DNA of 50,055 nt from IMG/VR virus record IMGVR_UViG_3300031576_000069, positions 1 through 50,055 of that record; one strand, 5' to 3'. A program made the translations under genes and the position numbers. This DNA comes from a virus. Below the pieces are notes generated by a model, which did not search any database, was not told where the DNA came from, and saw nothing but the letters and a program-made list of their open reading frames with translations. The stretch's first letter is position 1. Each line of letters begins with the position of its first letter. This document shows, one piece after another, positions 3,838-40,136 of the stretch.

Positions 3838-3866
3838 AGTATAGCATCCGTTATGACGCTTGTCAA
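3838..3866 (-). promoter_or_regulatory. Sigma-70 promoter with palindromic spacer (P2)
   Basis: TTGACA, 17-bp spacer, TATACT on the minus strand. The spacer holds CGTCATAACG at 3849-3858, a one-mismatch version of the palindrome in the other left-arm promoters, in the identical register (spacer positions 3-12). TGC precedes the -10, giving an extended -10. It drives the genes from 3816 downward. Confidence 0.88.
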
Positions 3867-4570: not shown

Positions 4571-4599
4571 AGTATAACATGGGTCATGACCGAAGTCAA
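4571..4599 (-). promoter_or_regulatory. Sigma-70 promoter with palindromic spacer (P3)
   Basis: TTGACT, 17-bp spacer, TATACT, with TGT before the -10 (extended -10). The spacer contains the perfect 10-bp palindrome GGTCATGACC at 4582-4591, in the same register as P1, P2 and P4. It drives the zinc-finger gene starting at 4533. Confidence 0.9.
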
Positions 4600-6930: not shown

Positions 6931-6959
6931 AGTATAGCTTTCGTCATGACGGTTGTCAA
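6931..6959 (-). promoter_or_regulatory. Sigma-70 promoter with palindromic spacer (P4)
   Basis: TTGACA, 17-bp spacer, TATACT on the minus strand. The spacer carries the perfect palindrome CGTCATGACG at 6942-6951, same register as P1-P3. It drives the run of genes from 6909 to 4603 (membrane protein, zinc proteins, DUF7007-like, clamp-like). Confidence 0.9.
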
Positions 6960-25776: not shown

Positions 25777-28700
25777 TTAGGGGACGATGCTCCCGTCGAG
25801 GCCGCGCGGGTTGGTGACCACGCCGCCGTACTCGTGCCGGACCTTGTACGTGATCCGCTCGTTGGTGAACACGTCGCCGAGCAGGGGGTCGTCCTGGACG
25901 AGGATCACCGGATCCTCCTCGCCTTCGACGAACCCGAGTTCGATCGACTCCAGTTCCTCCTGCCGCGCCTGGAGGTACCAGTTGTTCACGTCGCCCAAGT
26001 ACGGGACCCCGATGGGCTCCGCGGACTTGAAGTTGTCGTTGATGTCGTTGTTCGCCGACCCGGGCTTCTGCTCCGAGTTGACGAGCACCTGCGCCTTCGG
26101 CAGTTCCTGCAGGGGCACCCACAGGATGGGCTTCATCTCCCCCATGCCGAGCCCCAGCGTTTCCTGCGCGCTCTCGTCCTGCTGGAGCATCATGCGCACG
26201 CGCGCCGCGCGCAGGCTGTCCGCGTCCAGGGCGTCGGTGCCCAGGTTGGCGCGCGCGACCGCGTAGATCGCCACCGCATCGGCCAGGACGTCCGTGTTTA
26301 TCCCGCCGCCTCCGGCGTTGCCGACGAGGACGTTGAACACGAACTTGTTCAGCGTGCGGATGGCCGCGCGGGCGATCCCGGGCCCGATCTGGCGCAGAGC
26401 GCGCAGGTCGTCGCCGAGGATCATCTCGCGCGTGATCTGGTACGAGCGGCCGCGCTTCTGCGGCGTGTACGCCTCCTCGCGCTCGGTCGGCGTGGTGAAC
26501 GCGGTGAACGCCCCGTTCTGGGCCACGATCGCCAGGTCGTTGAACGCCCCCCACTGGATCGCCCGCTGGGTGCGGAAGTCGTTCAGCGGGCGGGTCGTCA
26601 CGGCCTTGCGCCAGTGATCGGGGAACCCCTTGTACGTCCGGAGCATGTGCCGGGTGATCGAATCCCCGAAGATCTTCGGGAGATCGGTCGTGACCGCCTC
26701 GACCATGCGCGGGGAGAACCGCCGCCGGTCGAACCGGACGTCGTTGTCCCCGGTGAGGAACGACCAGGCCTCGCGCAGGCCCCGGAACGGGCGGATGCCC
26801 GCGTACTTGTCCTTGCTCTCCTTGAGGCGAGCGAGATCCGGATCGACCAGGAGGTCGACCGCGAGTTGGATGCGCTCGCTCTCGGACATCCCGGGCTTGA
26901 CGGTCCCGCCGGGCGTGCCCATGCCGACGATGTTCCCGCTCTCGCTGAGCTTAGCGAGCAGGTCCTTGGCCTCGGTGATCTTGACGTCGATCTGCTCGAC
27001 GGTCAGCACCTGGCCGGCCATCTCCTTGGAGAGGCGCTCGCGCATGGCCATCGGGAGGTTGCTCTCGACGAGCTTGGCGCGCATGACGGCCTGGCTCTCG
27101 CGAACCCGGCTCTCCTGCAGGGCCTTGCCCTGGTTCTCGACCTGGGTGGTCAGGTCCTTGAACGCCTTGGGGTCGACCGACTCGGACGCCCTGACGGGCG
27201 GGACGACCGGTGCCGGGACGGGCGCCGGGGGCGTGGCCGACGCCTGGACCGGAGCGGGCACGACGACCACGGGGGCCGGAGCGGGCACCGGAACCTGTGC
27301 GGTCTGGCTCGAGGGCTCGCGGTACGGGCCGGCCTTGTCGCCGAGGGCCTCGAGCGCCATCTGCAAGGCTTCCATGGCCTTGGCGCTGTCGTTGGCCTTC
27401 AGGGCCTCGATCGCCTGCTTGAGCAGGTCGGCCGCGGCCTCGCAGACGTGCGACTCCGCGCACGGCTGGGCCTTCATCTTCGCCTGCAGGGCCTCGACGG
27501 CCTTGCTCATCGGCGCGATCAACTGCGCCTCCGTCAACGAATCCGGGACTCCGACGCCCTCGAGCACTTGCGGCGCGAAGGCCCGGATGAACTCCAGCAT
27601 CTTCTTGTTCATGGGCACATCTCCTTTGGTATCGCTGGCCTTGAGTCGACGCATCCGACCTCCGGCCGCTGGGTAGGTGACGACGTCGAGCGCGTACGCC
27701 TTGTCGATGGACTCGACGCGCTTCGTCGGCACCCCGTGGATCGACGGTCCGTCCGCGACGGTACCTTCCACGTCGATGGAAAATCCGAGCTTATCCAACC
27801 GCCCGGTATCCCATAGATTTTTGAACACCTCTCGCAGGTTCTCGTCAACGAGGTGGAGATCGGCGACGATACAGCCCTTGCCGTCCACCTCCTCGTAGCG
27901 CGCTTTCTGCAGGTAGCCGACCAGGTTGCCGGCCACCCCTTCGGGGTAGGAGGAGCGCACCTTGTCGGGCAGGTGATCATATAATTCGGGTTCGAACTTG
28001 TGGATGAAAACGTTGAGGTCCTCGAACAGTGGGACCGCCTTCTGGAGCGTCTCCGGGGGATAGAGGCGGCCGTTCTTGCTCATGCCGCTCTCGATGACGA
28101 CCACTTCCCAGAGCTTGCCCGTCTTGGGGGCCTCGCTCTCGTAGAGCTTGCCGATCACGGCCTTGACCCCGTCGGCCATGTCGATCGTGCGGAAGGTCTT
28201 TTGCCCGAACTGCTCGGGCTCCTTCTGGCGGAAACGCCAGGCGCCGCCGGTGTCGTCGATCTTGCCGAAATGGAATCCGTGCTCGCCCAGCCATTTCTTG
28301 GCCGCGTCCAGGTCCTTGAACTTGTCCTTGGAGATGATGACCGTCTGGACGTTGGCAGTGTCTTTCGTCTCCGCTTCGCTGAGGTCGATGCTCCCCTGGA
28401 AAGGCTCGGGCACACCGGCCACGAATCGGACGTGCCCGTCGTAGTCGTCGCTCGCGCTGTTGATGCTTAGCGTGCGGCCTGAATCCAGGCCCTCAAACTG
28501 CTTCGCCTTGACGAAATCAACCTTGTTGATTTTCCCCTGGACTGCCTTTTCGGCCAGGCTCCCCTTGCCGCCATAGGATTTATAGTTGTCGCGCGTGACC
28601 GGACTGGCCGACAATTCCTTTTCGGATGGGCTCTTGCCTACGCCGAGAGCGCTCATTTCCTGGGCTATGCGCTCATCGAAGGCGGCCACGTTGTTCTGTC

Positions 28701-28833
28701 TCTCAGCTTTCTTGGCCGGGTCTTTCTCGGCGTTCATGCGCTCGAAGGCCGCGATACGGATGTCCTTTAGTTCGCTGAGGTTCTCGACATGGATCGTGGC
28801 TCTCTGTGCCCGAGCGCTCGCCGCCTTGGCCAC
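25777..28833 (-). CDS. Prohead protease-scaffold-major capsid fusion, 1018 aa (start uncertain)
   Basis: Four parts. (1) XkdF-like N-terminal domain, about residues 160-230: LDAAKKWLGEHGFHFGKIDD, WRFRQKEPEQF. (2) Prohead protease, about 240-400: WEVVVIESGMSKNGRLYPPE, His278 (VFIHKF) and Ser352 (LGFSIDVEG) as likely catalytic residues. (3) Scaffold with Pro/Ala/Val linker (about 515-550). (4) Mu gpT-like major capsid, about 700-1018: RRRFSPRMVEAVTTDLPKIF, GRSYQITREMILGDDLRALR. One polypeptide thus holds protease, scaffold and shell; the protease presumably frees the capsid. The GTG at 28833 has a poor RBS. The frame is open upstream to about 29122 and includes an FCPTGxGGGxDNSC motif, so the real start is probably upstream, perhaps a CTG at 29034 overlapping the previous stop. 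Confidence 0.88.
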   Translation of the reverse strand: MAKAASARAQRATIHVENLSELKDIRIAAFERMNAEKDPAKKAERQNNVAAFDERIAQEMSALGVGKSPSEKELSASPVTRDNYKSYGGKGSLAEKAVQGKINKVDFVKAKQFEGLDSGRTLSINSASDDYDGHVRFVAGVPEPFQGSIDLSEAETKDTANVQTVIISKDKFKDLDAAKKWLGEHGFHFGKIDDTGGAWRFRQKEPEQFGQKTFRTIDMADGVKAVIGKLYESEAPKTGKLWEVVVIESGMSKNGRLYPPETLQKAVPLFEDLNVFIHKFEPELYDHLPDKVRSSYPEGVAGNLVGYLQKARYEEVDGKGCIVADLHLVDENLREVFKNLWDTGRLDKLGFSIDVEGTVADGPSIHGVPTKRVESIDKAYALDVVTYPAAGGRMRRLKASDTKGDVPMNKKMLEFIRAFAPQVLEGVGVPDSLTEAQLIAPMSKAVEALQAKMKAQPCAESHVCEAAADLLKQAIEALKANDSAKAMEALQMALEALGDKAGPYREPSSQTAQVPVPAPAPVVVVPAPVQASATPPAPVPAPVVPPVRASESVDPKAFKDLTTQVENQGKALQESRVRESQAVMRAKLVESNLPMAMRERLSKEMAGQVLTVEQIDVKITEAKDLLAKLSESGNIVGMGTPGGTVKPGMSESERIQLAVDLLVDPDLARLKESKDKYAGIRPFRGLREAWSFLTGDNDVRFDRRRFSPRMVEAVTTDLPKIFGDSITRHMLRTYKGFPDHWRKAVTTRPLNDFRTQRAIQWGAFNDLAIVAQNGAFTAFTTPTEREEAYTPQKRGRSYQITREMILGDDLRALRQIGPGIARAAIRTLNKFVFNVLVGNAGGGGINTDVLADAVAIYAVARANLGTDALDADSLRAARVRMMLQQDESAQETLGLGMGEMKPILWVPLQELPKAQVLVNSEQKPGSANNDINDNFKSAEPIGVPYLGDVNNWYLQARQEELESIELGFVEGEEDPVILVQDDPLLGDVFTNERITYKVRHEYGGVVTNPRGLDGSIVP

Positions 28834-29030
28834 GTCTCCCGCGGGAGCCGCGCCGCCCGCGCCGCCGCCGGGTCCTCCGCAGGAGTTGTCGACGCCGCCT
28901 CCTGCGCCGGTTGGGCAGAAGCCGTTGAGGACGCGCGCGATCAGCGCACGAAAGCCGGGAAGATCATACGTCTGGGGCGAACGCGGAGGTGCCGCGATCG
29001 ATGTCGGGCAGGTCTCTGTCCAGCGCTCCT

Positions 29031-29297
29031 TCAGCCGTCTCTTGATGGCTCGGTCCCCTGCGCATGCGCAGGCGGGTGGGGAACCCGACTTGGTCCCGAG
29101 CCGCGTTGGCTGTCGGACTCACGGTGGCGGGCGAGTTGCTCGGCCGCGAGCGCGAGTCCTTGTGCATGGCGGGCGATCTGCCGGAGCAGACGCATCTCAC
29201 CGCTCATGTCCCCGTCATTGTATCTCTGGATCATGAATTCGTCAAGGGGTCGTTCCTTCCGCTGGCGGCGTTTCCGACGGCGATTGCGCTCGCTCAT
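29031..29297 (-). CDS. Hypothetical basic helical protein, 88 aa
   Basis: Starts MSERNRRRKRRQRKERPLDE, then a helix (MRLLRQIARHAQGLALAAEQ) and a Pro/Ser-rich tail. AGGAGG lies 9 nt upstream of the ATG. It begins inside the 3' end of the polyprotein gene and ends just at the beginning of the capsid reading frame (stop TGA overlaps a CTG of that frame). Possibly a small DNA- or RNA-binding capsid cofactor. Confidence 0.55.
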   Translation of the reverse strand: MSERNRRRKRRQRKERPLDEFMIQRYNDGDMSGEMRLLRQIARHAQGLALAAEQLARHRESDSQRGSGPSRVPHPPAHAQGTEPSRDG

Positions 29298-32200
29298 GAG
29301 CGGTGGCCTCCTGCCCCCGACTCGTATCCAAGGCGTCTTTCTGCCCACTGCGCGTCCGCAACCAGGTCTCTGACCCAGCCCACAGGGTGATCCCCTCTGC
29401 GGCCGCGACATCCTGCTCAGACTGGTTCCTGAAGTCAGTCCACCACCCGCCTTGGCCTCCGCCGAGGTCGTAGCCGTAGCGCCCGCTCTTGAGCACGGCG
29501 CCCGCGCTCTCCCGGCGGAAGCGCGTGATCAGCGCCACGGCCTGGCCGCGGTTGCTCGCCAGGGCGTGCTCCACAGGGCGAACGTGCTTGCCCGCTCGGA
29601 TCCTGGCGAGGAAGGTCGCCGCGCGCACGAAGTCCGTGCGGTGCACGTCCCGCCCGTCTATCCAGAGGATGTCGCTCACTGTCAAGCGCAGGCCGGCGTC
29701 GATCGCCGGGTCGTTGGCACCGGACTCGATGTAGCTGGCGATCTCGCCGCGCGCGCGGCGCGCGCCCTCCACCAAGAGTTCGAGCGTCGCCTCGGCCACG
29801 AAGTCGGAAGGTTGGGCCAGGAGTCCCTCCCACACGGAGGTCATGAGATTGACGTCCACGACCAGACCGCGCTCGTCCTCGATCTCGAGCCGGTCTCCCA
29901 CCTTGTTGACGAACAGGCGCACGCCCTCGATAAGGGGCTCCACCCGCACGGGGAAGTCCTCGGCCTCGAGGTACCGCACGGCCGTGGACGGACGGTTGGG
30001 CTCGTCGCCTGCGCGCGTCCCCGGCTGAGGGCTCGCGTAGAAGTAGGAGCGGAATGGCTCGACCTGGTCGGCGCTGGCACTCGCACGCGCTTCCCGGAGA
30101 GCCTCGGGCACGAGTTCGCCCACGAAGTTCCCGCCCATGACGCGGCTCATGCGCTGGATTTCCCGCTCCTCGGCCGGACGCACGCTGACCACCAGGTCCG
30201 CGATAGGGATGTGATTCGCGGTCGGGTTCTTCATCTCGGCGATGAGGTTGAGCGTCCACTCCGGAGGCAACTGCCCCTTGATCCTGGTGGCGAGGTCGCG
30301 AAGGAACTCCGCGTCCTGGGCCGGCCAGTTGACCCAGAGGTCGAGGTTAGCGCCATTGCCCTCGATGGGCAAACCGCCCACGATCGACAGGAATGGCTTG
30401 CGCAGGGTTATCGGCGTGGTGAGCACGCCCGCCGCCTTGGCGAGCCCGATCTCGGCCGCGGCGTACTTCTCCGTCAACTGGTCGAGCATGTCCTTCGGGC
30501 GGTGCTCGAGCCCCCGGCGTTGCATCTCGCGCAGTATCCGCGCGTGGCGGTCGACCACGTCCTGTGGGTGCTCCTCGCGCCGGTCGGTCCAGGCGTCCTC
30601 CCACTCGCGGTGGATGGTCCCGTGCGCGACCACGAGTTCCATGTTGCTGAGATCGGCAAGATTCAGGTCGAAGGCCTCCGTCGCATTGTCCGCGTAGCGC
30701 AGGTCACCAATCCCTGTCTGCGGGGCCGAGACCTTGCGCGCGCGCTCGAGGCGGATGAACTCGCGCACGGGGTATACCCAGACGGAGTGCCCTCGCCTGG
30801 GCATGGCCGCAATCTGCTCGGAGGTCAGGCCCATCCTGGACCCGTGGATTTCCAGGGCTTCGCCGATGGACGCGGTATTGATCTCGGTCGGCGCCGCATG
30901 GCGAACAAAGCCAACGAGATGGCCCTGGTGGACCACGCCGTTGAAAGCGTTGGCCAGACCCTGGACTTGTTCGGGGTATGCGCTCGCCCGCATCTTATTC
31001 GGAGAGGCCGCCGACGGGAGAGCGATAGCCTTGTCGACAAGGCGTGTGAGAGCGCGCCGGAGTAACTCCGCCGAAGCCCCTGCGGAGTTGATGGTCGTCA
31101 GCGGAGCCTCATCCTTGATCTCGAACGTGGTCTTGCCACGGCGAATGATCTCGCGCACGATCGCGGTCGCGAAGTCCTCGACGGCGTTGGCGTCCTTGAA
31201 CTCGGTACGCCCGCCATTGGCCATGATCGCGAACTTGTCGGCCACGAGACGCCAATCATCGGCGAGTTGCTCGTCCGTCAGCTTCGCCGCGTCGTATCCG
31301 TCGAGTACGAACTGCTCGATGGGCTCCCCGGCCGCTGGGCACTCGGCGGCGCCGGTGCATGGCTCGCCGATCGCGCAGGCGTCACAGCACGGCGGCCGCG
31401 GGCCCGCCTCGGCTACCGGTGCGGGCGTGATCTTGCCCGTGCCCTCGCAGATCGGGCAGAGCACGAAGTGCCAGCCGTCCTCGGCGTGCTTGCGCTCCTC
31501 GGCGAGCACCCACCGGCGCATGAGTTCCGTATCGGTCTCGAGCGGGGACTCGACCATATCCGCCCGTGGACTGGCATCGCTGGTCGCGCCCTTGATGGGC
31601 ACCCAGCCGGTGCCCTCGCACAGCCATTTGCAGATCGTGTTCGGGTCTGGGAGCGGGATGCCCAGCGCTTGGTAGCGGTCGCTGAACTCGAAGGCGGCGA
31701 GGAGGCGGGTGTGCTCGAACTCCTGCCCGGTGGCCAGGCGGTAGTAGAGGCGCCCGGCTCGGCGGTTGACGCGGGAGGACTGGACGAGACGGCGGTATGC
31801 GGGTGTACCGGCGGGCGGAGCCTGCGCCGGATCGTCAGCGGTTAGGGCTCGGGCTCGTCCTTCTTCGGGATGTAGAACCCTCGCTCCATCGACTTCGTCA
31901 GGGCATCGTCGAGGTCCCGCGAAGCCTTCTTCAACTCCTCTGGCGAGAGTCCTTTTTTCGGACTCTTGGGCTCCTCTCCCGGCGAGTTCTGCGGCTTTTT
32001 TTTCGGCATTTCCGATGTACTTCCTGGCGACGGGCTTAAAGCGCTCGATCGCCTGCTGGACCTTCCGCGATGTGGCGGACCCCAGCCCACTCTTAGTATA
32101 ACGGAAGTCACCTCGCTTGTCAAGGCTTATTTCCCGTGGTTTGGTCGTGCTCCCTGGTTGACGATCCGGGTTCTCGAACACCCTGATCTTGACCCTTGGA

Positions 32201-33831
32201 TCGTCCTTGTATTTCCTCGCCACGGCGATGATGGTCTCCTGGGCCTTGACGTGTGCCTTGGCCAACTCATCGCCTGGCACCCATCGGCCGCCATTGACCT
32301 CGTTCTCATAGCGCTTCTTCACGCCCTGCATCGCCGACTCGAATGGGCGATGAACGTACGCGATCTTGACCTCGCGGCCGCTCTTGAGCGCGGCCTCGAT
32401 CTGGCGGACAGCGCGTTGCTCATTGGACATGACACCGTCCATGATCACATCGCTTTTCTTTACGGCCGCGGCCATCAAGCCGTCGCTAATCGTGGACTTT
32501 CCGCTCCCACCTCCACCGGCCATGAACAGCACGTGCCCATTAGGCGGTTCGGCCAGCAGTTCGTTGTACCGCTGTTCGACCTTGGCGCTCGATGGCTGGT
32601 GCGTGCTCAGCGTGTGGAGCGTGCGGCTGTCGTTGTTCTCGTCGTATTCGGAGGAGAGTTTGCGGTATAAGTCCACGTCAAGGCGCTTGCCTCCCTCCGT
32701 TCCATCCATGACGGCGTAAGCATCGTCGGCTTCCTGAGTGGCCAGACGTTTGCCCAGGCGCTCCTCGGTCTTGCGCTGGCTGGTGCTCAGCGCGTAGTCC
32801 GTCATCGGTTGGTATTCGAATGTCCTATCACCGGATTTGATGGACACCCTGCCCGCCCCATAGCCGGGCGCGCACGAGTTATCCTGCCCACCCCCGGGGC
32901 CGGTGGGGCAGAAGGCCTCGCCGCCGGAAGTCCATCCGCCCCTAGGCTCGCGGAATTCCGCTGGTGCCTCGTACCGCTGTGCGATCTTGAGCGCGCTATC
33001 GCGATCGGCGTCAATGACCGTGGCCGTGACCTTGCGTCCCATATCCTTGGCGGCCATCCACGTGTGGTGCCCATCCAGGATGTACCCGTCGCGCGTGATG
33101 TAGATCGGGCGCGCGAGCGAGGCCTCTGCCTCGGGGGTCCCGCTCTTGAGGAACTTGACGACCTCCGGCTTGTAATCCCTCTGCAGGGGCTTGAGCGTCG
33201 AGGGGTCAACATCGGTGCGGAGCCCTCCGTATGCGTCCTCGTCGCGCAGGTAGCGCTCGAAGTCATCGGCCGCTCGGTGTGGGATGCGCGGCATCTCCGA
33301 CTTGGGCAACCCGTCCTTGACTCCCGGGATAGGCAAGGTCCCGCCCTTGCCGCCGGCGCCGCCACCGCTCTTGGACGGGCAGGAGTTATCTACGCCACCG
33401 CCCTTGCCCGTCGAGCAGAATGCTTCCTGAGCGGGCTCAGCGTCATGCTCCCAGACCGCGAACCCGCTCTCGCGAAAGACGATGAGCGTGCCGTTCAGTT
33501 GTCGGCCGCCGAAGCTCATGCGCAGGGTCTCCTCATCATCGTCCACGACCTCGGTCGGGATCATGATCTCCAGAGCGCGAAGCCTCGCCGGCGCGTCCCC
33601 GTCGTTGCCTGGTCGCCCTGAGGCGATCACCCCCTGTAGGGTGAACAGCCGGTACTCCGAGAACGCCTCGTCGACGACTACAGGAAGCGGCATCTCGCGC
33701 GCGCCCAATGGGTTGGCGCCGAAGCGCAGGTGCCTGAACGGCGGGGTGTCGCCCCCGATGCGGATGCTCCAGCCCTTGGGAGATACCGCTCCCTGGGGCG
33801 TGATCTCGAGCAGGCTCGCTCTTATTTTCAT
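29242..33831 (-). CDS. Polyvalent protein: ParB-like, zeta-toxin kinase, nucleotidyltransferase-like and ligase-like domains, 1529 aa
   Basis: Domains in order: beta domain (1-130); two copies of an FC(S/P)TGxGGGxDNSC motif (138-151 and 307-320); ParB/Srx-like fold between them (about 210-275: PIYITRDGYILDGHHTWMAA); zeta-toxin-type P-loop kinase (about 430-555; Walker A GGGGSGKST, residues 439-447; YVHRPFESAMQGVKKRYENE); zinc motifs (CPICEGTGK at 792, Cys cluster 815-831); nucleotidyltransferase-like domain (about 1145-1220: FLSIVGGLPIEGNGANLDLW, acidic pair in DLDLW); ligase-like domain (about 1290-1410: VEPLIEGVRLF then SDILWIDGRDV). The nucleotide-binding Lys expected in KxDG is absent (LIEG), so the ligase part may be inactive. 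Lies between head genes, so may be packaged and injected. A second frame over 31842-32009 raises doubt about the middle. Confidence 0.75.
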   Translation of the reverse strand: MKIRASLLEITPQGAVSPKGWSIRIGGDTPPFRHLRFGANPLGAREMPLPVVVDEAFSEYRLFTLQGVIASGRPGNDGDAPARLRALEIMIPTEVVDDDEETLRMSFGGRQLNGTLIVFRESGFAVWEHDAEPAQEAFCSTGKGGGVDNSCPSKSGGGAGGKGGTLPIPGVKDGLPKSEMPRIPHRAADDFERYLRDEDAYGGLRTDVDPSTLKPLQRDYKPEVVKFLKSGTPEAEASLARPIYITRDGYILDGHHTWMAAKDMGRKVTATVIDADRDSALKIAQRYEAPAEFREPRGGWTSGGEAFCPTGPGGGQDNSCAPGYGAGRVSIKSGDRTFEYQPMTDYALSTSQRKTEERLGKRLATQEADDAYAVMDGTEGGKRLDVDLYRKLSSEYDENNDSRTLHTLSTHQPSSAKVEQRYNELLAEPPNGHVLFMAGGGGSGKSTISDGLMAAAVKKSDVIMDGVMSNEQRAVRQIEAALKSGREVKIAYVHRPFESAMQGVKKRYENEVNGGRWVPGDELAKAHVKAQETIIAVARKYKDDPRVKIRVFENPDRQPGSTTKPREISLDKRGDFRYTKSGLGSATSRKVQQAIERFKPVARKYIGNAEKKAAELAGRGAQESEKRTLARGVEEGFAGPRRCPDEVDGARVLHPEEGRARALTADDPAQAPPAGTPAYRRLVQSSRVNRRAGRLYYRLATGQEFEHTRLLAAFEFSDRYQALGIPLPDPNTICKWLCEGTGWVPIKGATSDASPRADMVESPLETDTELMRRWVLAEERKHAEDGWHFVLCPICEGTGKITPAPVAEAGPRPPCCDACAIGEPCTGAAECPAAGEPIEQFVLDGYDAAKLTDEQLADDWRLVADKFAIMANGGRTEFKDANAVEDFATAIVREIIRRGKTTFEIKDEAPLTTINSAGASAELLRRALTRLVDKAIALPSAASPNKMRASAYPEQVQGLANAFNGVVHQGHLVGFVRHAAPTEINTASIGEALEIHGSRMGLTSEQIAAMPRRGHSVWVYPVREFIRLERARKVSAPQTGIGDLRYADNATEAFDLNLADLSNMELVVAHGTIHREWEDAWTDRREEHPQDVVDRHARILREMQRRGLEHRPKDMLDQLTEKYAAAEIGLAKAAGVLTTPITLRKPFLSIVGGLPIEGNGANLDLWVNWPAQDAEFLRDLATRIKGQLPPEWTLNLIAEMKNPTANHIPIADLVVSVRPAEEREIQRMSRVMGGNFVGELVPEALREARASASADQVEPFRSYFYASPQPGTRAGDEPNRPSTAVRYLEAEDFPVRVEPLIEGVRLFVNKVGDRLEIEDERGLVVDVNLMTSVWEGLLAQPSDFVAEATLELLVEGARRARGEIASYIESGANDPAIDAGLRLTVSDILWIDGRDVHRTDFVRAATFLARIRAGKHVRPVEHALASNRGQAVALITRFRRESAGAVLKSGRYGYDLGGGQGGWWTDFRNQSEQDVAAAEGITLWAGSETWLRTRSGQKDALDTSRGQEATAHERAQSPSETPPAEGTTP
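31842..32009 (-). other. Alternative reading frame within the polyprotein gene, 55 aa
   Basis: In the +1 frame an ATG (32009) opens a 55-residue frame of strongly protein-like composition: MPKKKPQNSPGEEPKSPKKG, then SPEELKKASRDLDDALTKSM, ending KKDEPEP. The main frame in the same stretch is Arg/Gly-rich and less plausible. The two frames diverge at a run of eight A (minus strand) just after the ATG. No good RBS exists for the ATG. Loss of one A would join the zeta domain to this tail and stop at 31842. It may be a slippage product, an indel, or an overlapping gene. Confidence 0.4.
32095..32123 (-). promoter_or_regulatory. Consensus-like promoter inside the polyprotein gene
   Basis: TTGACA, 17-bp spacer, TATACT on the minus strand, but within the coding frame of the polyprotein (residues around 570-580). 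The spacer lacks the TCATGA palindrome of P1-P4. It would start transcripts about 80 nt before the alternative frame at 32009. It may be real or a chance match; the quality equals the intergenic promoters. Confidence 0.5.
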
Positions 33832-33920: not shown

Positions 33921-34256
33921 CTACTCCGTCTCCGACTTCGGAGCCTTCTCCGCCTTGGCCTTCGGCTTGGGCTTCGTCAGCCACTGGCCGTCGAACCCGA
34001 ACTCGTGGCGCTGGCCGTCCGAGCATACCACCCGCCAGAGCTTCTGCTCCGCGTACGACTTCACGGCCAGGACATCGTCCATCTTGTAGCCGGCGCCCTT
34101 GATCGCCTTGGCCAGCGCCTCCGGCAGGCGCTCGCTCATGCGCTCCTTGGCCGGCGGCTGTGCCGTCGGCGCCGCGGCCGCCGGTGCCTGGACCTGCGCC
34201 TTCTGCGTGGGAGGCGCCTGCGTCTCCGTCTCTACCACCTTCGCTACTTCGTTCAT
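33921..34256 (-). CDS. Hypothetical protein, 111 aa
   Basis: N-terminal low-complexity Ala/Pro/Gln tract (about 1-38), then a compact domain (LPEALAKAIKGAGYKMDDVL, KLWRVVCSDGQRHEFGFDG) and a Lys-rich C-terminus. No family recognised; among head genes. The 118-bp gap upstream (34257-34374) contains alternating GC repeats that can fold and only a 25-codon frame. Confidence 0.65.
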   Translation of the reverse strand: MNEVAKVVETETQAPPTQKAQVQAPAAAAPTAQPPAKERMSERLPEALAKAIKGAGYKMDDVLAVKSYAEQKLWRVVCSDGQRHEFGFDGQWLTKPKPKAKAEKAPKSETE

Positions 34257-34912: not shown

Positions 34913-36001
34913 TCATGTTCTCGCGGCCGTCCTTGCGGACCCGGCGCGGTCCTCCGCCGCCGCAATGGCGGCGAAATCGTTTGCGCTCGCGTATAGCCTA
35001 CGGACGCGCGAGCCCGCCCTGGCGGTGATCTTGACCGCCCAGTCCGGGCGCTGGATACGCACCGGCGGGAGGTCGCGCGCGGTCAGCGGCATCGACTCCT
35101 GCTCGCGCTCGGTCTCGAAATCGGGGACCATCGTGCACCGGCAGTTTATCACGTTTCCGGGGCTCGCCGCTGGATCGCGCGGGTACATCATGTCCTCGAC
35201 CTCGCCGAGTTCTTCCCTGCCCTTGACGGTGACCGTGAGTGGGACACGGAACGGCTCGTTGACCGGCACGGTCTGCATGTGGGCCCCGCCCTCGTCGGCG
35301 CTCAGCAGGTGGCCAAGGCGCGTGCGGTCGTCGCCTACAGACACCCACTGCTTGTGCAGGCCCGGGAAGGTGTTCGTCATGTCGAGCAGTTGCGCCATCT
35401 CCACCTGGGAGTGGATGCCCAGCATCTCAGTCCTGGCGATGGCCTCCATCTGGGCGAGGCTCTTGCCGAAGGCGCCGGACATCTCGTCCGCGACCTCGAA
35501 CACGCTCCGCCCGCTGATGACCCCTACGTTGATGATCTCGTTGGCACGCCCGAGTTGTGCCTGCGTCAGCGAGCGGATGAGGTCCGCGGAGCGCTCGGCC
35601 GCATTCTCCACGAGTTCGGGCGAGATCGACAGCTTGGCCGACGGCTTGATCCCCCTGGCTTTCAGCATGTCCTCAGTGAACTCGAGGCCCATGCGCGCGA
35701 ACTGCTCCTCGTTGATCGCCAACTCGCGGGCCGCCCTGACCGCGAACTGGCCGAGCAGGCGGTCGATCTCGTCCTTCAACTGGCGGCCCATGGCGCGCGA
35801 GAACGTGGCCTTGCTCGGGAGATCGCGCACTTGGTCGAGGATGCTCGACTTGGCCTTCTGGAGCAGGTCGACCATGGCCTCCACCTTCTTCGCCTCGACC
35901 TTCCCAGTCTGGCGGATGAGCCTGTCGATCTGGCGCGCGAATGCGCGCTTCTGCCCCGGGGTGACCCGCGCGCGCTGTTCCAGCAGGCGCTGATAGATCA
36001 A
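34913..36001 (-). CDS. MuF-like minor head (head morphogenesis) protein, 362 aa
   Basis: N-terminal long coiled helix (residues 10-110), then the MuF core: ARTEMLGIHSQVEMAQLLDM, HKQWVSVGDDRTRLGHLLSA, ending NVINCRCTMVPDF. The NCRC motif and the 'D.R.R..H' pattern are diagnostic for the phage Mu gpF/SPP1 gp7 family, which links portal and capsid and can enter the host with DNA. Starts at a TTG overlapping the upstream stop (TTGA). C-terminal 50 residues are basic. Confidence 0.88.
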   Translation of the reverse strand: MIYQRLLEQRARVTPGQKRAFARQIDRLIRQTGKVEAKKVEAMVDLLQKAKSSILDQVRDLPSKATFSRAMGRQLKDEIDRLLGQFAVRAARELAINEEQFARMGLEFTEDMLKARGIKPSAKLSISPELVENAAERSADLIRSLTQAQLGRANEIINVGVISGRSVFEVADEMSGAFGKSLAQMEAIARTEMLGIHSQVEMAQLLDMTNTFPGLHKQWVSVGDDRTRLGHLLSADEGGAHMQTVPVNEPFRVPLTVTVKGREELGEVEDMMYPRDPAASPGNVINCRCTMVPDFETEREQESMPLTARDLPPVRIQRPDWAVKITARAGSRVRRLYASANDFAAIAAAEDRAGSARTAART

Positions 36002-36444
36002 AACTCGTCCTCCCGGTCGATCATGCTCCCGGAGCGTTGATCACCGTGGTGGCGCTTCTGCGGCTCGTCCTGATCGGGCCTGCCCTCCCAATCTCTGAGC
36101 ATCTTCTCATCGAACGCTACGTAGATGATGCCCCCTGATTTTGGGTTCTTGCCTTCAGGCGCCGCGGCCGCGCTCCGGCGGATCTCCGCGGCCAGGGCGT
36201 CCGAGCGCACCCACCGGCATCCCGAGGAGTCGGTGAACGCGGTGCGCCCGCCGCGCTCGATCTCGGCCTCGCCCACGAGTTCACAATCCGGTGCGCCCAT
36301 GAATTCAAGCGTCAGGCGCGGGATGTCGCCCGCGATGGCCATGACGTGGAAGCCGCGCACGTTGGGGACTTCCTTCCCGGTCTTGGCATCGCGCACGATC
36401 ATCGTGTGCGGCTGGTTGGCGTCGCCCTCGATCTTGATCCTCAT
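35998..36444 (-). CDS. Hypothetical protein, 148 aa
   Basis: Beta-rich N-terminal domain (RGFHVMAIAGDIPRLTLEFM), of the kind often encoded next to portal genes, and a charged C-terminal tail (DEPQKRHHGDQRSGSMIDRE). Overlaps portal and MuF genes by 4 bp at each end. No family recognised. Confidence 0.7.
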   Translation of the reverse strand: MRIKIEGDANQPHTMIVRDAKTGKEVPNVRGFHVMAIAGDIPRLTLEFMGAPDCELVGEAEIERGGRTAFTDSSGCRWVRSDALAAEIRRSAAAAPEGKNPKSGGIIYVAFDEKMLRDWEGRPDQDEPQKRHHGDQRSGSMIDREDEF

Positions 36445-38054
36445 GCTGGCTCGGCGCCCCCGTTCGCGGAGACGGCCGCGCGAGCGGTGGCGCGCACGCT
36501 GGCTTTCGTCAGGGTGGACGCCCTTGGCGTCGGAGGAGCCTTCGGAGTCTCGGCTGGTGGCACCGCCGCATAGGGCTCGCTCGCCGCGTCCTGAGCCCTT
36601 GCCGTGGCCCCCGCCTGCTCGGCCGCGAACTGTGCATCCGCCTCCCCGGGCTTGGGGGCCTTGATCTCGACCCCGACCTCAGCGGCCTGCGCGTGCCAGA
36701 CCTCGGCCGCCTGCTCGCGCTTGATGAACCCCTCGGTGATCGCGCTAGCGAGCGTGCTCGTCAGCTTCTCCAGCGCGTCCACGAACTGCAGGACATCCTT
36801 GCTTGATAGATCGGGGGGGATGATCTGGAAGCCGGCGGCCGCCTGTGTCGGCGTAAGCCGCTTGGCCAGCACGGCCTGGTCGATCTGGAACTGGATGACC
36901 GTGGTGAGCACCTGGACCCACTGCGCCTGCTTGCGCTTCATCTTGCGCAGGATCGGCGGCGCCTGCCCTTCGATCGTAGACCTGTTGGTATCCCCGCCAT
37001 CGGAGTACCAGGCCTCTGGTATCCCCATGCTCCCCAGGATCAACATCTTGATGATCTTGGCCACGGCTTCGACCTCGGCGGCGTTGATCTTCGGCGCCAG
37101 GGCCTCCCACTTCTCTTTCTCGTTGTGGATGCGGAAGCTCCCCGGGCGCGGGGGCTTCATCTCCAGGGCGGTGGCCCGCTCATCGATCTCCGGCTGTTCT
37201 GCGCCCTCGATCGTGATGTCGTAGAGATGGGCGTTCAGGAAGTTGATGCGCTCCATGAGGCTGAACACGAACTGGTCGAACGCGTCGAGCCAGTCCGCGA
37301 GCCGGTAGAGATCGCTCATCCCGAAGTTCAGGAACGTGAGTTTGTTGACCGTGAAGTAGAACACGTCGCCCTTGAGGAGACCCTGCGCGTCCGGGTTCTT
37401 CGGATCGGTGTTGGCGGTCTCGACGACTTTCCAGGTCTCGGTCTTGCCCTCAACGCTCTCGCTTCGGCGCTTGATCTTCAGCGCGGAGGCCCTGCCCGCG
37501 ATGTTCGGATGGGGGATGATGTCCTCGATCCACGCGGGGTCGACCGGCGAGACCTTGACGTGCCCGTTGTGCGGGTTGACGAACGGGCGGAGCAGGAACG
37601 TCCCGAACAGGATCAACTCGAGATAGCGGTCGAACTGGCTGATCTCCCACGCGTTGTCCGGGTCGTCCCAATGGCGCTTGATGATCTTGCTCAGTTCCTC
37701 GTCCTCGGCCTTCCACGTGAAGCCGTCGCCTACCACGAAGTCGGCCATCAACTCCAGGATGCGGAAGGCCATCGGGTTCTGTTGCCAGAGAAAGTGCGCG
37801 ACCGACATCTGCTTCTGCCACTTGGCGGGCGCGATCTCCTTGTCCGAGCGGGCGGTCAGGCGCCTGAACCCCGCGTCGTTGTCCGTGTTCGAGGACGCGG
37901 AGTGGACCTCCTTGAGGTTGAGCAGGCCGCGCAGGGCCGTGCGCAGGACCCGCCTGTCCGAGGTGCTCATCTTCTCGATAGCGTCGGACATGCCCTTGCT
38001 GACGGGCTTGCCCCCGCCGCCGGACCGGCCTTTCCCGCCGTTGCTGTTCGCCAT
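36441..38054 (-). CDS. Portal protein, 537 aa
   Basis: Forms the dodecameric DNA entry ring. Residues 60-500 have the portal fold: MSVAHFLWQQNPMAFRILEL, FVVGDGFTWKAEDEELSKII, DRYLELILFGTFLLRPFVNP, LADWLDAFDQFVFSLMERIN, KIIKMLILGSMGIPEAWYSD. Pro/Ala-rich C-terminus. ATG overlaps the TerL stop (TAATG). Confidence 0.92.
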   Translation of the reverse strand: MANSNGGKGRSGGGGKPVSKGMSDAIEKMSTSDRRVLRTALRGLLNLKEVHSASSNTDNDAGFRRLTARSDKEIAPAKWQKQMSVAHFLWQQNPMAFRILELMADFVVGDGFTWKAEDEELSKIIKRHWDDPDNAWEISQFDRYLELILFGTFLLRPFVNPHNGHVKVSPVDPAWIEDIIPHPNIAGRASALKIKRRSESVEGKTETWKVVETANTDPKNPDAQGLLKGDVFYFTVNKLTFLNFGMSDLYRLADWLDAFDQFVFSLMERINFLNAHLYDITIEGAEQPEIDERATALEMKPPRPGSFRIHNEKEKWEALAPKINAAEVEAVAKIIKMLILGSMGIPEAWYSDGGDTNRSTIEGQAPPILRKMKRKQAQWVQVLTTVIQFQIDQAVLAKRLTPTQAAAGFQIIPPDLSSKDVLQFVDALEKLTSTLASAITEGFIKREQAAEVWHAQAAEVGVEIKAPKPGEADAQFAAEQAGATARAQDAASEPYAAVPPAETPKAPPTPRASTLTKASVRATARAAVSANGGAEPA

Positions 38055-39613
38055 TACGGTCTCCTCCCGCGAAGTCCGAACCGATCTGTCAGGCGGCGGA
38101 TGCCGCCCCCGCTGTAGGGCGCGCGCCCGCGCAGGACGCCCCGGTCATCCGGCCGGGCCTGCGCGCGCTCCTCCACGCCGGCCCCGGCACCCGCGCTGGC
38201 GGCCTTGAGCGAGCGGCTGGCCGCGTAGTGGGCGAGGACCACGGCGTCCAGGCGATCGGGGCTCCGGCCGAGGCGGGCGCGTATTTCGTCCTTGCTCTCG
38301 ACGCGGATGCGGCCCTTGCGGTCCAGGTCATATCGGATGTCCGACAACTCGGCCATCAAATCGTTATCGTTGGGGAGGGCGATCGGCTCGTTGTCCGAGG
38401 GGTCAAGCGCCTCGCGCAGTGCCCACACGATCTCCGAACGCAGGTCCGCGAACTTGGCGGCGTTGCGGGGCTTGGTCGCGACGTTGACCCCACGCGCGGG
38501 CCTGTACTTGTCATGGCGCAGGATGTCCACAACCCCGGAGCCGACGCCGATCACGTCGATGAACACCCGGGACGATCCGTCGGCCTCGCCGCGCTTGCGC
38601 ACCCGGCCAGCGACTTGTGGGTTGTCGAGCCCGTGGTAGACCTCGAGCGGCATGACCCGCCGACCGTGCATGGGCGCGATGGTCGAATCGTCATCGCCGA
38701 AGCGCGCGACGTCGACGCCGAGGACGCGCTCGCCCCCGGTACGTACCTGGCGATGGATCGCCTTCTCGATCCACTCGATGGGGATGACCGCGTCGGCCAC
38801 CTGCTTGGGCGGCAGGGCCCGGACCTTGACGCGCACGAAGTTTGAGTCCCAGCCGTAGGTCTTGACCCACTCATCGCGCTGGTGCTTCTCGATCATGCCG
38901 GGGATGATCGTCTTTCCGGCCCTCACGTTCGGCGTACTGTCCGCGTCGATTCGGATCTGCCCGGTGTAGAGCCCGCGCTTGCCGTGCGTGCACTCGTAGG
39001 CCTCCTCCCCGGGCCCGGCGTTGGGGTTGAAGGTCAGGAGCATGTGCGCGTTGCCGCCGGCGAGAGCGTTCTCCGCGGCTTCGACGATCTCCTGCTCAAC
39101 ACCCTGGGCCTCGTCGATCCAGATCAGGATGTTCTTGGCGTGGACGCCGTGCACCGAGTCCGGGTCCTTGGGGCTGAATCCGACGGCGAACCAATCGTCG
39201 GCGAGCTTCCACTCGGTGTCGATCATCCGCCCGCCGAGGGGGAGGCGCGAATACCGGTGGAGGAGCTTGAGGTTTTTGAACTGGACCTTCTTGACCTGGC
39301 GGAAGGTAGGGGCCGTCAGGTAGGCTTCGCACTTGGGGCCGAACGCGTGCATGAACGCCAGCACGGCCATGGCCGCCGCGTAGGTCTTGCTCGAGGCGAC
39401 GCACCCGCTCACGGCCGTCCTCCGGTTCCGGAGCACGCTCTCGACGATCTCAATCTGTTTTTCCCACGGGTTCTGACCGAGCACCTCGCGGATGTACCAC
39501 TCCGGGTCGGCGATGACGCGCGCGCGGAAAGCATCAGGTGTCAGCCCCAGGCCGCCGCTCGGCGGCCTCGCCGTCACCCGAACGAGAGGGACCGACGCCG
39601 CCTTCTCCGTCAT
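38054..39613 (-). CDS. Terminase large subunit, about 519 aa
   Basis: ATP-driven packaging motor and DNA-cutting nuclease. Motor motifs: Walker A-like SGCVASSKTYAAA (a Ser replaces the usual Gly before Lys), Walker B NILIWIDEAQG, coupling motif LLTFNPNAG. Nuclease motifs: LGVDVARFGDDDSTIA, RVFIDVIGVGSGVVD and SPDRLDAVVLAHYA with three Asp. In-frame ATGs lie at 39706, 39691, 39664, 39649 and 39613; the last gives the smallest overlap with TerS (about 80 bp), and upstream residues are low-complexity, so it is preferred. Confidence 0.92.
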   Translation of the reverse strand: MTEKAASVPLVRVTARPPSGGLGLTPDAFRARVIADPEWYIREVLGQNPWEKQIEIVESVLRNRRTAVSGCVASSKTYAAAMAVLAFMHAFGPKCEAYLTAPTFRQVKKVQFKNLKLLHRYSRLPLGGRMIDTEWKLADDWFAVGFSPKDPDSVHGVHAKNILIWIDEAQGVEQEIVEAAENALAGGNAHMLLTFNPNAGPGEEAYECTHGKRGLYTGQIRIDADSTPNVRAGKTIIPGMIEKHQRDEWVKTYGWDSNFVRVKVRALPPKQVADAVIPIEWIEKAIHRQVRTGGERVLGVDVARFGDDDSTIAPMHGRRVMPLEVYHGLDNPQVAGRVRKRGEADGSSRVFIDVIGVGSGVVDILRHDKYRPARGVNVATKPRNAAKFADLRSEIVWALREALDPSDNEPIALPNDNDLMAELSDIRYDLDRKGRIRVESKDEIRARLGRSPDRLDAVVLAHYAASRSLKAASAGAGAGVEERAQARPDDRGVLRGRAPYSGGGIRRLTDRFGLRGRRP

Positions 39614-40136
39614 CGCCGCCGGCCCTTCGCCCGGGTTCTGGCTCGTCATCGTCGTCTCCGTCATCCGCGTCGTCGCCAGCGGAGGCGTCATCGCCACCCG
39701 CGGCATCCCCGGCCGGAGCCACCGGCGAACCGGGGACTGCGGCCGGGACTCCCCCGCGCAACCAGTCCTCGAGCGTGAGCACCCCAGAGTGCTTGATGTG
39801 GTGGGTGATCAGCCCGAGCAGGACGTTGATCTGCTTCTGCGCGAGCACGGCACCGCGATGGTCCTTGCCCTGGTCGGCCTTTCGGTATTGCGTTTCGAGA
39901 CGGGCGATTGCCTTCCCGATCTCCTCCTCGCGCACGAACTTCGCGGCCTCCCGGAACTCGGTGCGCACCTCTCGGAGATAGCGCTCGACCTGGCGCCTCG
40001 ACATATTGAGCTTCAGGCCGGAAATTCCCTTTTCCGACAGAAAGCGGCGTATGTTGTCGATGCGATAGCCGAGGAGATACATCTCGGCCACCACGGTCCG
40101 AATCTCGGCTCTCTGTGGATCCGTATAGCGCGGCAT
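39534..40136 (-). CDS. Terminase small subunit, 200 aa
   Basis: N-terminal helix-turn-helix (EIRTVVAEMYLLGYRIDNIR, LNMSRRQVERYLREVRTEFR), a helical oligomerisation part (VREEEIGKAIARLETQYRKA) and an acidic C-terminal tail (GDDASAGDDADDGDDDDEPE). Recognises the phage DNA and recruits TerL; first gene of the late unit, starting 15 bp after the -10 of promoter 40151-40179. The acidic tail is encoded where the TerL gene begins. Confidence 0.82.
   Translation of the reverse strand: MPRYTDPQRAEIRTVVAEMYLLGYRIDNIRRFLSEKGISGLKLNMSRRQVERYLREVRTEFREAAKFVREEEIGKAIARLETQYRKADQGKDHRGAVLAQKQINVLLGLITHHIKHSGVLTLEDWLRGGVPAAVPGSPVAPAGDAAGGDDASAGDDADDGDDDDEPEPGRRAGGDDGEGGVGPSRSGDGEAAERRPGADT

What the first reader, a model, noticed from the sequence alone, without database searches (positions are those of the whole stretch)
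29242..33831. A 1529-residue phage polyprotein joins ParB-like, zeta-kinase, nucleotidyltransferase-like and ligase-like domains
A single frame in the head cluster holds a ParB/Srx-like domain, a zeta-toxin P-loop kinase (GGGGSGKST), zinc clusters, a GGL..G.N.DLDL nucleotidyltransferase-like fold and a DNA-ligase-like domain in which the usual KxDG lysine is missing (LIEG). Its position between capsid and MuF genes suggests packaging into the virion. The combination could be an injected anti-host or DNA-processing effector, partly degenerate.
Basis: partly seen in the sequence, partly recalled or inferred. Interest (0 to 1): 0.8.

Follow-up and report, generated by a model that had tools for sequence, protein, structure and literature searches.

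The report
Phage head cargo with junction tag
The long reading frame is probably two neighbouring virus genes rather than one protein: a head-associated protein carrying a DNA-binding-like and a kinase-toxin domain, each preceded by a short cysteine-glycine peptide that recurs at domain junctions in uncultured phages but is missing from cellular genomes, followed by a separate worn-out ligase-like protein.

Summary
The 1529-aa frame exists and the domains are real, but one natural protein is unlikely. (1) aa 1-~611 is a head-module polyvalent protein: N-domain, junction peptide, ParB-like domain, junction peptide, zeta-type kinase with intact P-loop. (2) At the window's only run of 7 or more A (A8), codon signal leaves the frame for ~50 codons; the alternative frame ends at TAA 31844-31842. 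A near-consensus promoter (32123-32095), an SD and an ATG (32009) sit there, so a second unit begins inside the frame. (3) The downstream half is a degenerate relative of the NTase-DNA ligase gene that archaeal-type viruses (ANMV-1, IMG/VR contigs) carry without ParB or zeta. The nucleophilic lysine, intact in every relative, is Leu here; the first NTase Asp is Asn; the C-terminal ligase domains are absent. Searches found no description. Its role, perhaps a release junction, is inferred.

The parts
31999..33831 (-). Upstream gene (aa 1-611 of the frame): N-domain - junction peptide - ParB-like - junction peptide - zeta kinase. With 7 rather than 8 A at 32003-31996 it would end at TAA 31844-31842.
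   Evidence: frame shift point inferred
33427..33831 (-). N-terminal domain, aa 1-135, no relative found
33379..33417 (-). Junction peptide copy 1: CSTGKGGGVDNSC
32932..33330 (-). ParB-like domain (aa 168-300), related to segments of F116-type giant phage proteins and Xanthomonas phage X1
32872..32910 (-). Junction peptide copy 2: CPTGPGGGQDNSC
31999..32799 (-). Zeta-type kinase region (aa 345-611); P-loop GGGGSGKST at 32517-32491
32095..32123 (-). Sigma70-type promoter TTGACA-17-TATACT inside the frame
31842..32009 (-). 55-aa ORF in the +1 frame (MPKKKPQ..DEPEP stop) with SD-like AGGAAG at 32025-32020; alternatively its coding stretch is the true C-terminus of the zeta protein
31996..32003 (-). 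A8 run, the only run of 7 or more A in the window on either strand; point of the frame switch; in the 55-aa ORF it reads A AAA AAG (dnaX-type slippery heptamer)
   Evidence: slippage is inference
29242..31841 (-). Downstream unit: Cys-rich stretch, two helical segments, NTase-like, ligase-like; no ATG/GTG/TTG in frame between the end of the 55-aa ORF and aa 759
30073..30417 (-). NTase-like domain (aa 1139-1253), first catalytic Asp replaced by Asn
29422..30006 (-). Ligase adenylation-like domain (aa 1276-1470); nucleophilic Lys is Leu1300; motif IV EG is AG; motif V not recognisable; domains that follow in relatives are absent
28879..28917 (-). Junction peptide copy 3: CPTGAGGGVDNSC, ahead of the protease-capsid module
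25777..28971 (-). Junction peptide - ~180-aa accessory module - prohead protease - scaffold - capsid in one frame; no canonical start codon upstream of the peptide
29217..29245 (-). Sigma70-type promoter TTGACG-17-TACAAT ahead of protease-capsid
34913..36001 (-). MuF-like head protein
36441..38054 (-). Portal
38054..39706 (-). Large terminase

Best explanation
The region is a cargo block between the MuF head gene and the protease-capsid gene of an uncultured tailed phage. Its first gene encodes a polyvalent protein (N-domain, ParB-like, zeta kinase) in which each effector domain is preceded by a virus-specific junction peptide, [FY]C[PA]TGxG[GN]G[IV]D[NP][ST]C. Proposed mechanism: the protein is taken into the head; the junction peptides let the modules be released (by the phage prohead protease or another step acting at the Cys-Gly peptide) so that the ParB-like and zeta modules can act in the new host, zeta by phosphorylating UDP-sugar precursors. 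Shown: domains, gene context, peptide anatomy, spread and protein-level conservation. Inferred: packaging, release, injection, zeta activity. The second unit, started by an internal promoter, is a probably inactive relative of the NTase-ligase gene of ANMV-1-type viruses, kept perhaps as a structural or DNA-binding protein.
For: Domains. Two units: frame switch, internal promoter (79, 80: 8 matches in the window against 0.17 expected), relatives of the ligase half without ParB/zeta, absence of the block in Microcystis phage Mae-JY22, where MuF, a small ORF and protease-capsid follow one another. Peptide: at least 119 stretches in IMG/VR, capped, against one spurious match in 257 Gb of cellular genomes; within the fetched loci 269 relaxed copies against 1 on reversed proteins, first Cys never and second Cys twice lost; 320 within-locus pairs with no identical DNA and 53% of comparable fourfold sites differing, 59% expected if independent; median spacing 293 aa; domains before it: portal, S78 protease, MuF, ART; after it: ART, MuF, sigma70, GNAT, zeta, HNH (45, 46, 72); variants agree within a locus more than in any of 500 shuffles.
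Against: No virion or expression data. The junction peptide alone gets no confident fold (pLDDT 64). Its pattern was chosen by me, so part of its apparent invariance is by construction. Loci from one virus or from close relatives were not fully removed before the shuffle and count tests. The downstream unit lacks a canonical start codon, which a simple two-gene reading does not explain. No close relative of this phage was found, so A8 versus A7 could not be checked.
Confidence: 0.55

Rival explanations
1. The 1529-aa protein is real and made as written; the 55-aa ORF in the other frame is an overlapping small gene.
For: The frame is open throughout and the downstream half has no start codon of its own.
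Against: Codon signal at aa 612-672 is in the other frame, a pattern not seen inside other clear genes here; internal promoter; 57-codon open -1 frames arise by chance in 41% of windows; relatives of the downstream half have no ParB/zeta.
Confidence: 0.15
2. The A8/A7 run is a programmed slippage site: translation from ATG 32009 meets A AAA AAG and a -1 shift leads into the downstream half, giving a short and a long product.
For: Only long A run in the window, dnaX-type heptamer in register, SD upstream, no other start for the downstream half.
Against: RNA structure downstream of the run is not clearly more stable than shuffles (z between -0.7 and -1.6); no relatives to test conservation; an indel in the assembly explains the same facts.
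Confidence: 0.2
3. The junction peptide is not a release site but a structural staple (disulfide or metal site) or a flexible joint that tolerates module shuffling.
For: Both Cys nearly invariant; Gly/Ser-rich sequence follows.
Against: Strong conservation of the 13 residues is more than a plain linker needs; no confident fold predicted.
Confidence: 0.35
4. ParB-zeta is not virion cargo but is made in the infected cell, for example for superinfection exclusion or lysis.
For: Zeta kinases are usually cytoplasmic toxins (own knowledge); packaging was not shown.
Against: Gene lies between MuF and protease-capsid and shares the junction peptide with portal, MuF and protease fusions.
Confidence: 0.2

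Closest known systems
Polyvalent proteins of phages and conjugative elements (Iyer et al. 2017, PMC5512222)
   Same: Several effector domains in one polypeptide, head-gene context, ParB and zeta-like kinase among the listed domains, fusions to MuF and portal.
   Different: The recurrent Cys-Gly junction peptide was not found by term search of that text ('cysteine', 'Cys', 'glycine', 'linker' zero hits).
Neisseria gonorrhoeae zeta_1 toxin (PDB 6eph/6epi; species from own knowledge)
   Same: Homologous over ~150 aa including the N-terminal extension and P-loop.
   Different: Here inside a phage head-module protein after a junction peptide; no antitoxin gene identified.
ANMV-1 virus 'ATP-dependent DNA ligase' AJP62006 and IMG/VR relatives L124, L125, L129-L133
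   Same: Same domain order (helical segment, NTase, ligase adenylation domain), near head or packaging genes.
   Different: Relatives keep KxDG, and L124, L125, ANMV-1 and L129-L132 continue beyond the adenylation domain; the window copy lost the Lys, one NTase Asp and the downstream domains. None of L129-L133 carries the junction peptide in the ligase ORF.
MuF polymorphic toxins (PMC5576092)
   Same: Phage head gene neighbourhood with toxin-like domains.
   Different: MuF is a separate gene here; the effectors are not fused to it.

Membership tests
Polyvalent protein | Two or more conflict-type domains in one polypeptide | tested here: met
   ParB-like plus zeta within aa 1-611
Polyvalent protein | Encoded among virion genes of a portal-terminase phage | tested here: met
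   TerL, portal, MuF, protease-capsid neighbours
Polyvalent protein | Packaged and injected | not testable with these tools
   Needs virion proteomics
Zeta toxin kinase (PF06414) | Sequence score above curated cut-off and intact P-loop | tested here: met
   64.2 bits against 22.3; GGGGSGKST
Zeta toxin kinase (PF06414) | Neighbouring epsilon-type antitoxin | not tested
   Small neighbouring ORF 33921-34256 gave no confident PHROG match; no dedicated search
ATP-dependent DNA ligase | Adenylation-domain fold | tested here: met
   Foldseek 6.5e-11 to archaeal ligases; model pLDDT 65-85 over most of the ligase part
ATP-dependent DNA ligase | Nucleophilic Lys in KxDG | tested here: not met
   LIEG here; KKMDG, KKFDG or KKYDG in all relatives found
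ATP-dependent DNA ligase | Domains after the adenylation domain (OB fold) | tested here: not met
   Frame ends ~60 aa after it, relatives continue for hundreds of residues
Pol-beta type nucleotidyltransferase | GG(x)n DxD catalytic motif | tested here: not met
   NLD here, DID in relatives; NTase part of the model has low confidence
DdrB-like ParB DNase | Conserved active-site Arg | tested here: inconclusive
   DGHHT here; the position is Q or R in relatives; not aligned to DdrB itself
MuF polymorphic toxin | Effector fused to a MuF domain | tested here: not met
   MuF is a separate gene, 34913-36001

The most novel reading that the evidence does not exclude
A virus-only 13-residue peptide, repeated at module junctions of head proteins in many uncultured phages, is a general signal for processing or releasing effector cargo carried in the capsid; this window is one example with three copies.
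Probability: 0.35. Interest if true: 0.8.

Novelty: new variant of a known kind. Interest (0 to 1): 0.6.

Why it matters
Polyvalent and MuF-type phage proteins are known, but how effector modules fused to portal, MuF or protease are freed or handled in the virion is open. A sharply defined peptide at these junctions, seen in IMG/VR and not in cellular genomes, gives a direct handle: it can be mapped by N-terminal proteomics, used to find cargo in uncultured phages, and tested as a cleavage or sorting site. The ligase is a smaller point: an enzyme of archaeal-type viruses apparently kept as a pseudoenzyme in a head gene cluster.

Tried and rejected
Single-sequence scans of IMG/VR with the upstream and downstream halves found no relatives; the terminase found only distant phages that shared no other protein of this locus apart from a weak portal match in one, so A8 versus A7 could not be tested. 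Loss of the ParB active-site Arg as degeneration was rejected because relatives vary there. A downstream RNA stimulator of frameshifting was not supported. Structure of the junction peptide: no confident fold. tblastn of the peptide against phage isolates gave nothing, but a 24-aa query is insensitive; no PHROG family matched better than E 0.0085. Text search for peptide strings found no paper; figures are not searchable. Some first queries failed on wrong coordinates.

Full report
Observation. The frame 33831->29242 on the minus strand is open for 1529 codons from an ATG. The domain claims hold: zeta kinase by Pfam and by sequence to the solved zeta_1 toxin; a ParB-like segment that matches phrog_2859 and segments of giant proteins of F116-type phages; a ligase-like segment whose predicted structure matches archaeal DNA ligases; and an NTase-like segment aligned with that of ANMV-1 virus. 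The order of genes on the minus strand is terminase, portal, MuF, this block, protease-capsid.

One protein or two. Codon usage trained on clear genes of the window favours the frame from aa 1 to ~611 and again from ~680, but between them the +1 frame carries the coding signal (LLR up to 0.63 and GC3 0.90 per 30 codons, against negative values in the 1529 frame). Windows elsewhere with an equal contrast lie in ORFs or ORF starts that I judge not to be real genes. The switch sits at the only run of 7 or more A in 50 kb (32003-31996). The +1 frame reads MPKKKPQNSPGEEPKSPKKGLSPEELKKASRDLDDALTKSMERGFYIPKKDEPEP and stops at 31844-31842; its ATG (32009) has AGGAAG ten bases upstream. A TTGACA-17-TATACT promoter lies at 32123-32095; a pattern of this kind occurs 8 times in the window, 7 of them on the coding strand, against 0.17 expected. 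An open -1 frame of 57 codons occurs by chance in 41% of windows in this phage's genes, so the join is not evidence of a fusion. Two explanations remain for the upstream gene's end: 7 A in reality (then it ends at 31842), or slippage. Of 58 coding segments in the window, the downstream half has only nominal starts inside the zeta gene and protease-capsid has none in frame. I cannot resolve this from one assembly.

The downstream half. It is colinear with a gene of archaeal-type viruses: helical segment (QLADD), NTase, ligase adenylation domain. In ANMV-1, L124, L125 and L132 the ligase motif reads KK[FM]DG, and in L129-L131 and L133 KKYDG; in the window it is LIEG. Motif IV EG is AG, the motif V region is not recognisable, and the further domains present in relatives are missing. 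The NTase has N-L-D for D-I-D. Pfam finds an intact DNA_ligase_A_M domain in the relatives tested and none in the window. In these relatives the gene lies near portal or terminase genes and prohead-protease-like sequence, and carries no ParB or zeta domain (neighbour assignments partly from reading the sequence).

The junction peptide. The upstream half contains CSTGKGGGVDNSC before the ParB-like domain and CPTGPGGGQDNSC before the zeta domain; a third copy, CPTGAGGGVDNSC, precedes the protease-capsid module. Relaxed scoring in the fetched loci gives 269 copies against 1 on reversed proteins; variant classes are G[GN]G and D[NP][ST]C / KNDC / ENTC; the first Cys is never lost and the second twice. 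This conservation is partly by construction, because the loci were fetched by the strict pattern. Copies in one locus are never identical in DNA and differ at 53% of comparable fourfold sites (59% expected if independent), so selection acts on the peptide and not on DNA repeats. Non-redundant ORFs hold 1-5 copies with a median spacing of 293 aa. Pfam places portal, S78 protease, MuF or ART domains before it and ART, MuF, GNAT, sigma70, HNH, zeta and others after it; examples are MuF-peptide-sigma70-peptide (L016), portal-peptide-..-peptide-ParB-like (L014) and MuF..peptide-ART (L042). Variants agree within a locus more than in 500 shuffles (z 7.4), which shared descent could also cause. No PHROG family matched convincingly and no paper in the library contains the strings searched.

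Mechanism. Polyvalent proteins are proposed to be packaged and injected (PMC5512222), and that paper lists zeta-like kinases fused to MuF domains and ParB-like domains next to virion genes. A packaging signal alone would be superfluous between a portal or MuF domain and its effector, because those are virion proteins already; this favours a role at the junction itself, such as processing or release. The near-invariant Cys pair would also fit a disulfide or metal site. I put release first at modest confidence and list the staple as a close rival. None of these steps is shown.

Comparison. Microcystis phage Mae-JY22 has relatives of the MuF and protease-capsid proteins; between them lies one small ORF, with no cargo block and no junction peptide. 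The window therefore looks like a phage that has gained a cargo block there, or its relative has lost one.

Verdict. A real head-module cargo locus, mis-read as one protein; a known kind (polyvalent protein) with an apparently undescribed junction peptide, plus a probably inactive ligase-like neighbour.

Noticed in passing
786-814, 3838-3866, 4571-4599, 6931-6959 (-): Four promoters share a palindromic core in the spacer (ATCATGAT, GTCATaAC, GTCATGAC, GTCATGAC), which looks like an operator of a phage repressor.
   Followed up: no
28971-28833 (-): The protease-capsid coding signal, including the third junction peptide, starts upstream of any ATG, GTG or TTG in frame; an ATG sits out of frame next to it.
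   Followed up: partly
L124, L125: Archaeal-type virus contigs whose NTase and ligase ORFs also hold LAGLIDADG intein-like sequence, a transglycosylase-like segment, a DUF6884-like segment, a LigD 3'-phosphoesterase-like domain and, in L125, a C-terminal segment that resembles a prohead protease (the transglycosylase and protease readings are by eye).
   Followed up: partly
L023, L053 and others: Different phages use different 'dialects' before the peptide (ESR[AG]F, N[AV]F, LEVR, KAF, LAF), largely consistent within a locus.
   Followed up: partly
31996-31945 (-): The A8 run is followed ~30 bases later by a GAGTCC-GAAAAAA-GGACTC hairpin.
   Followed up: partly
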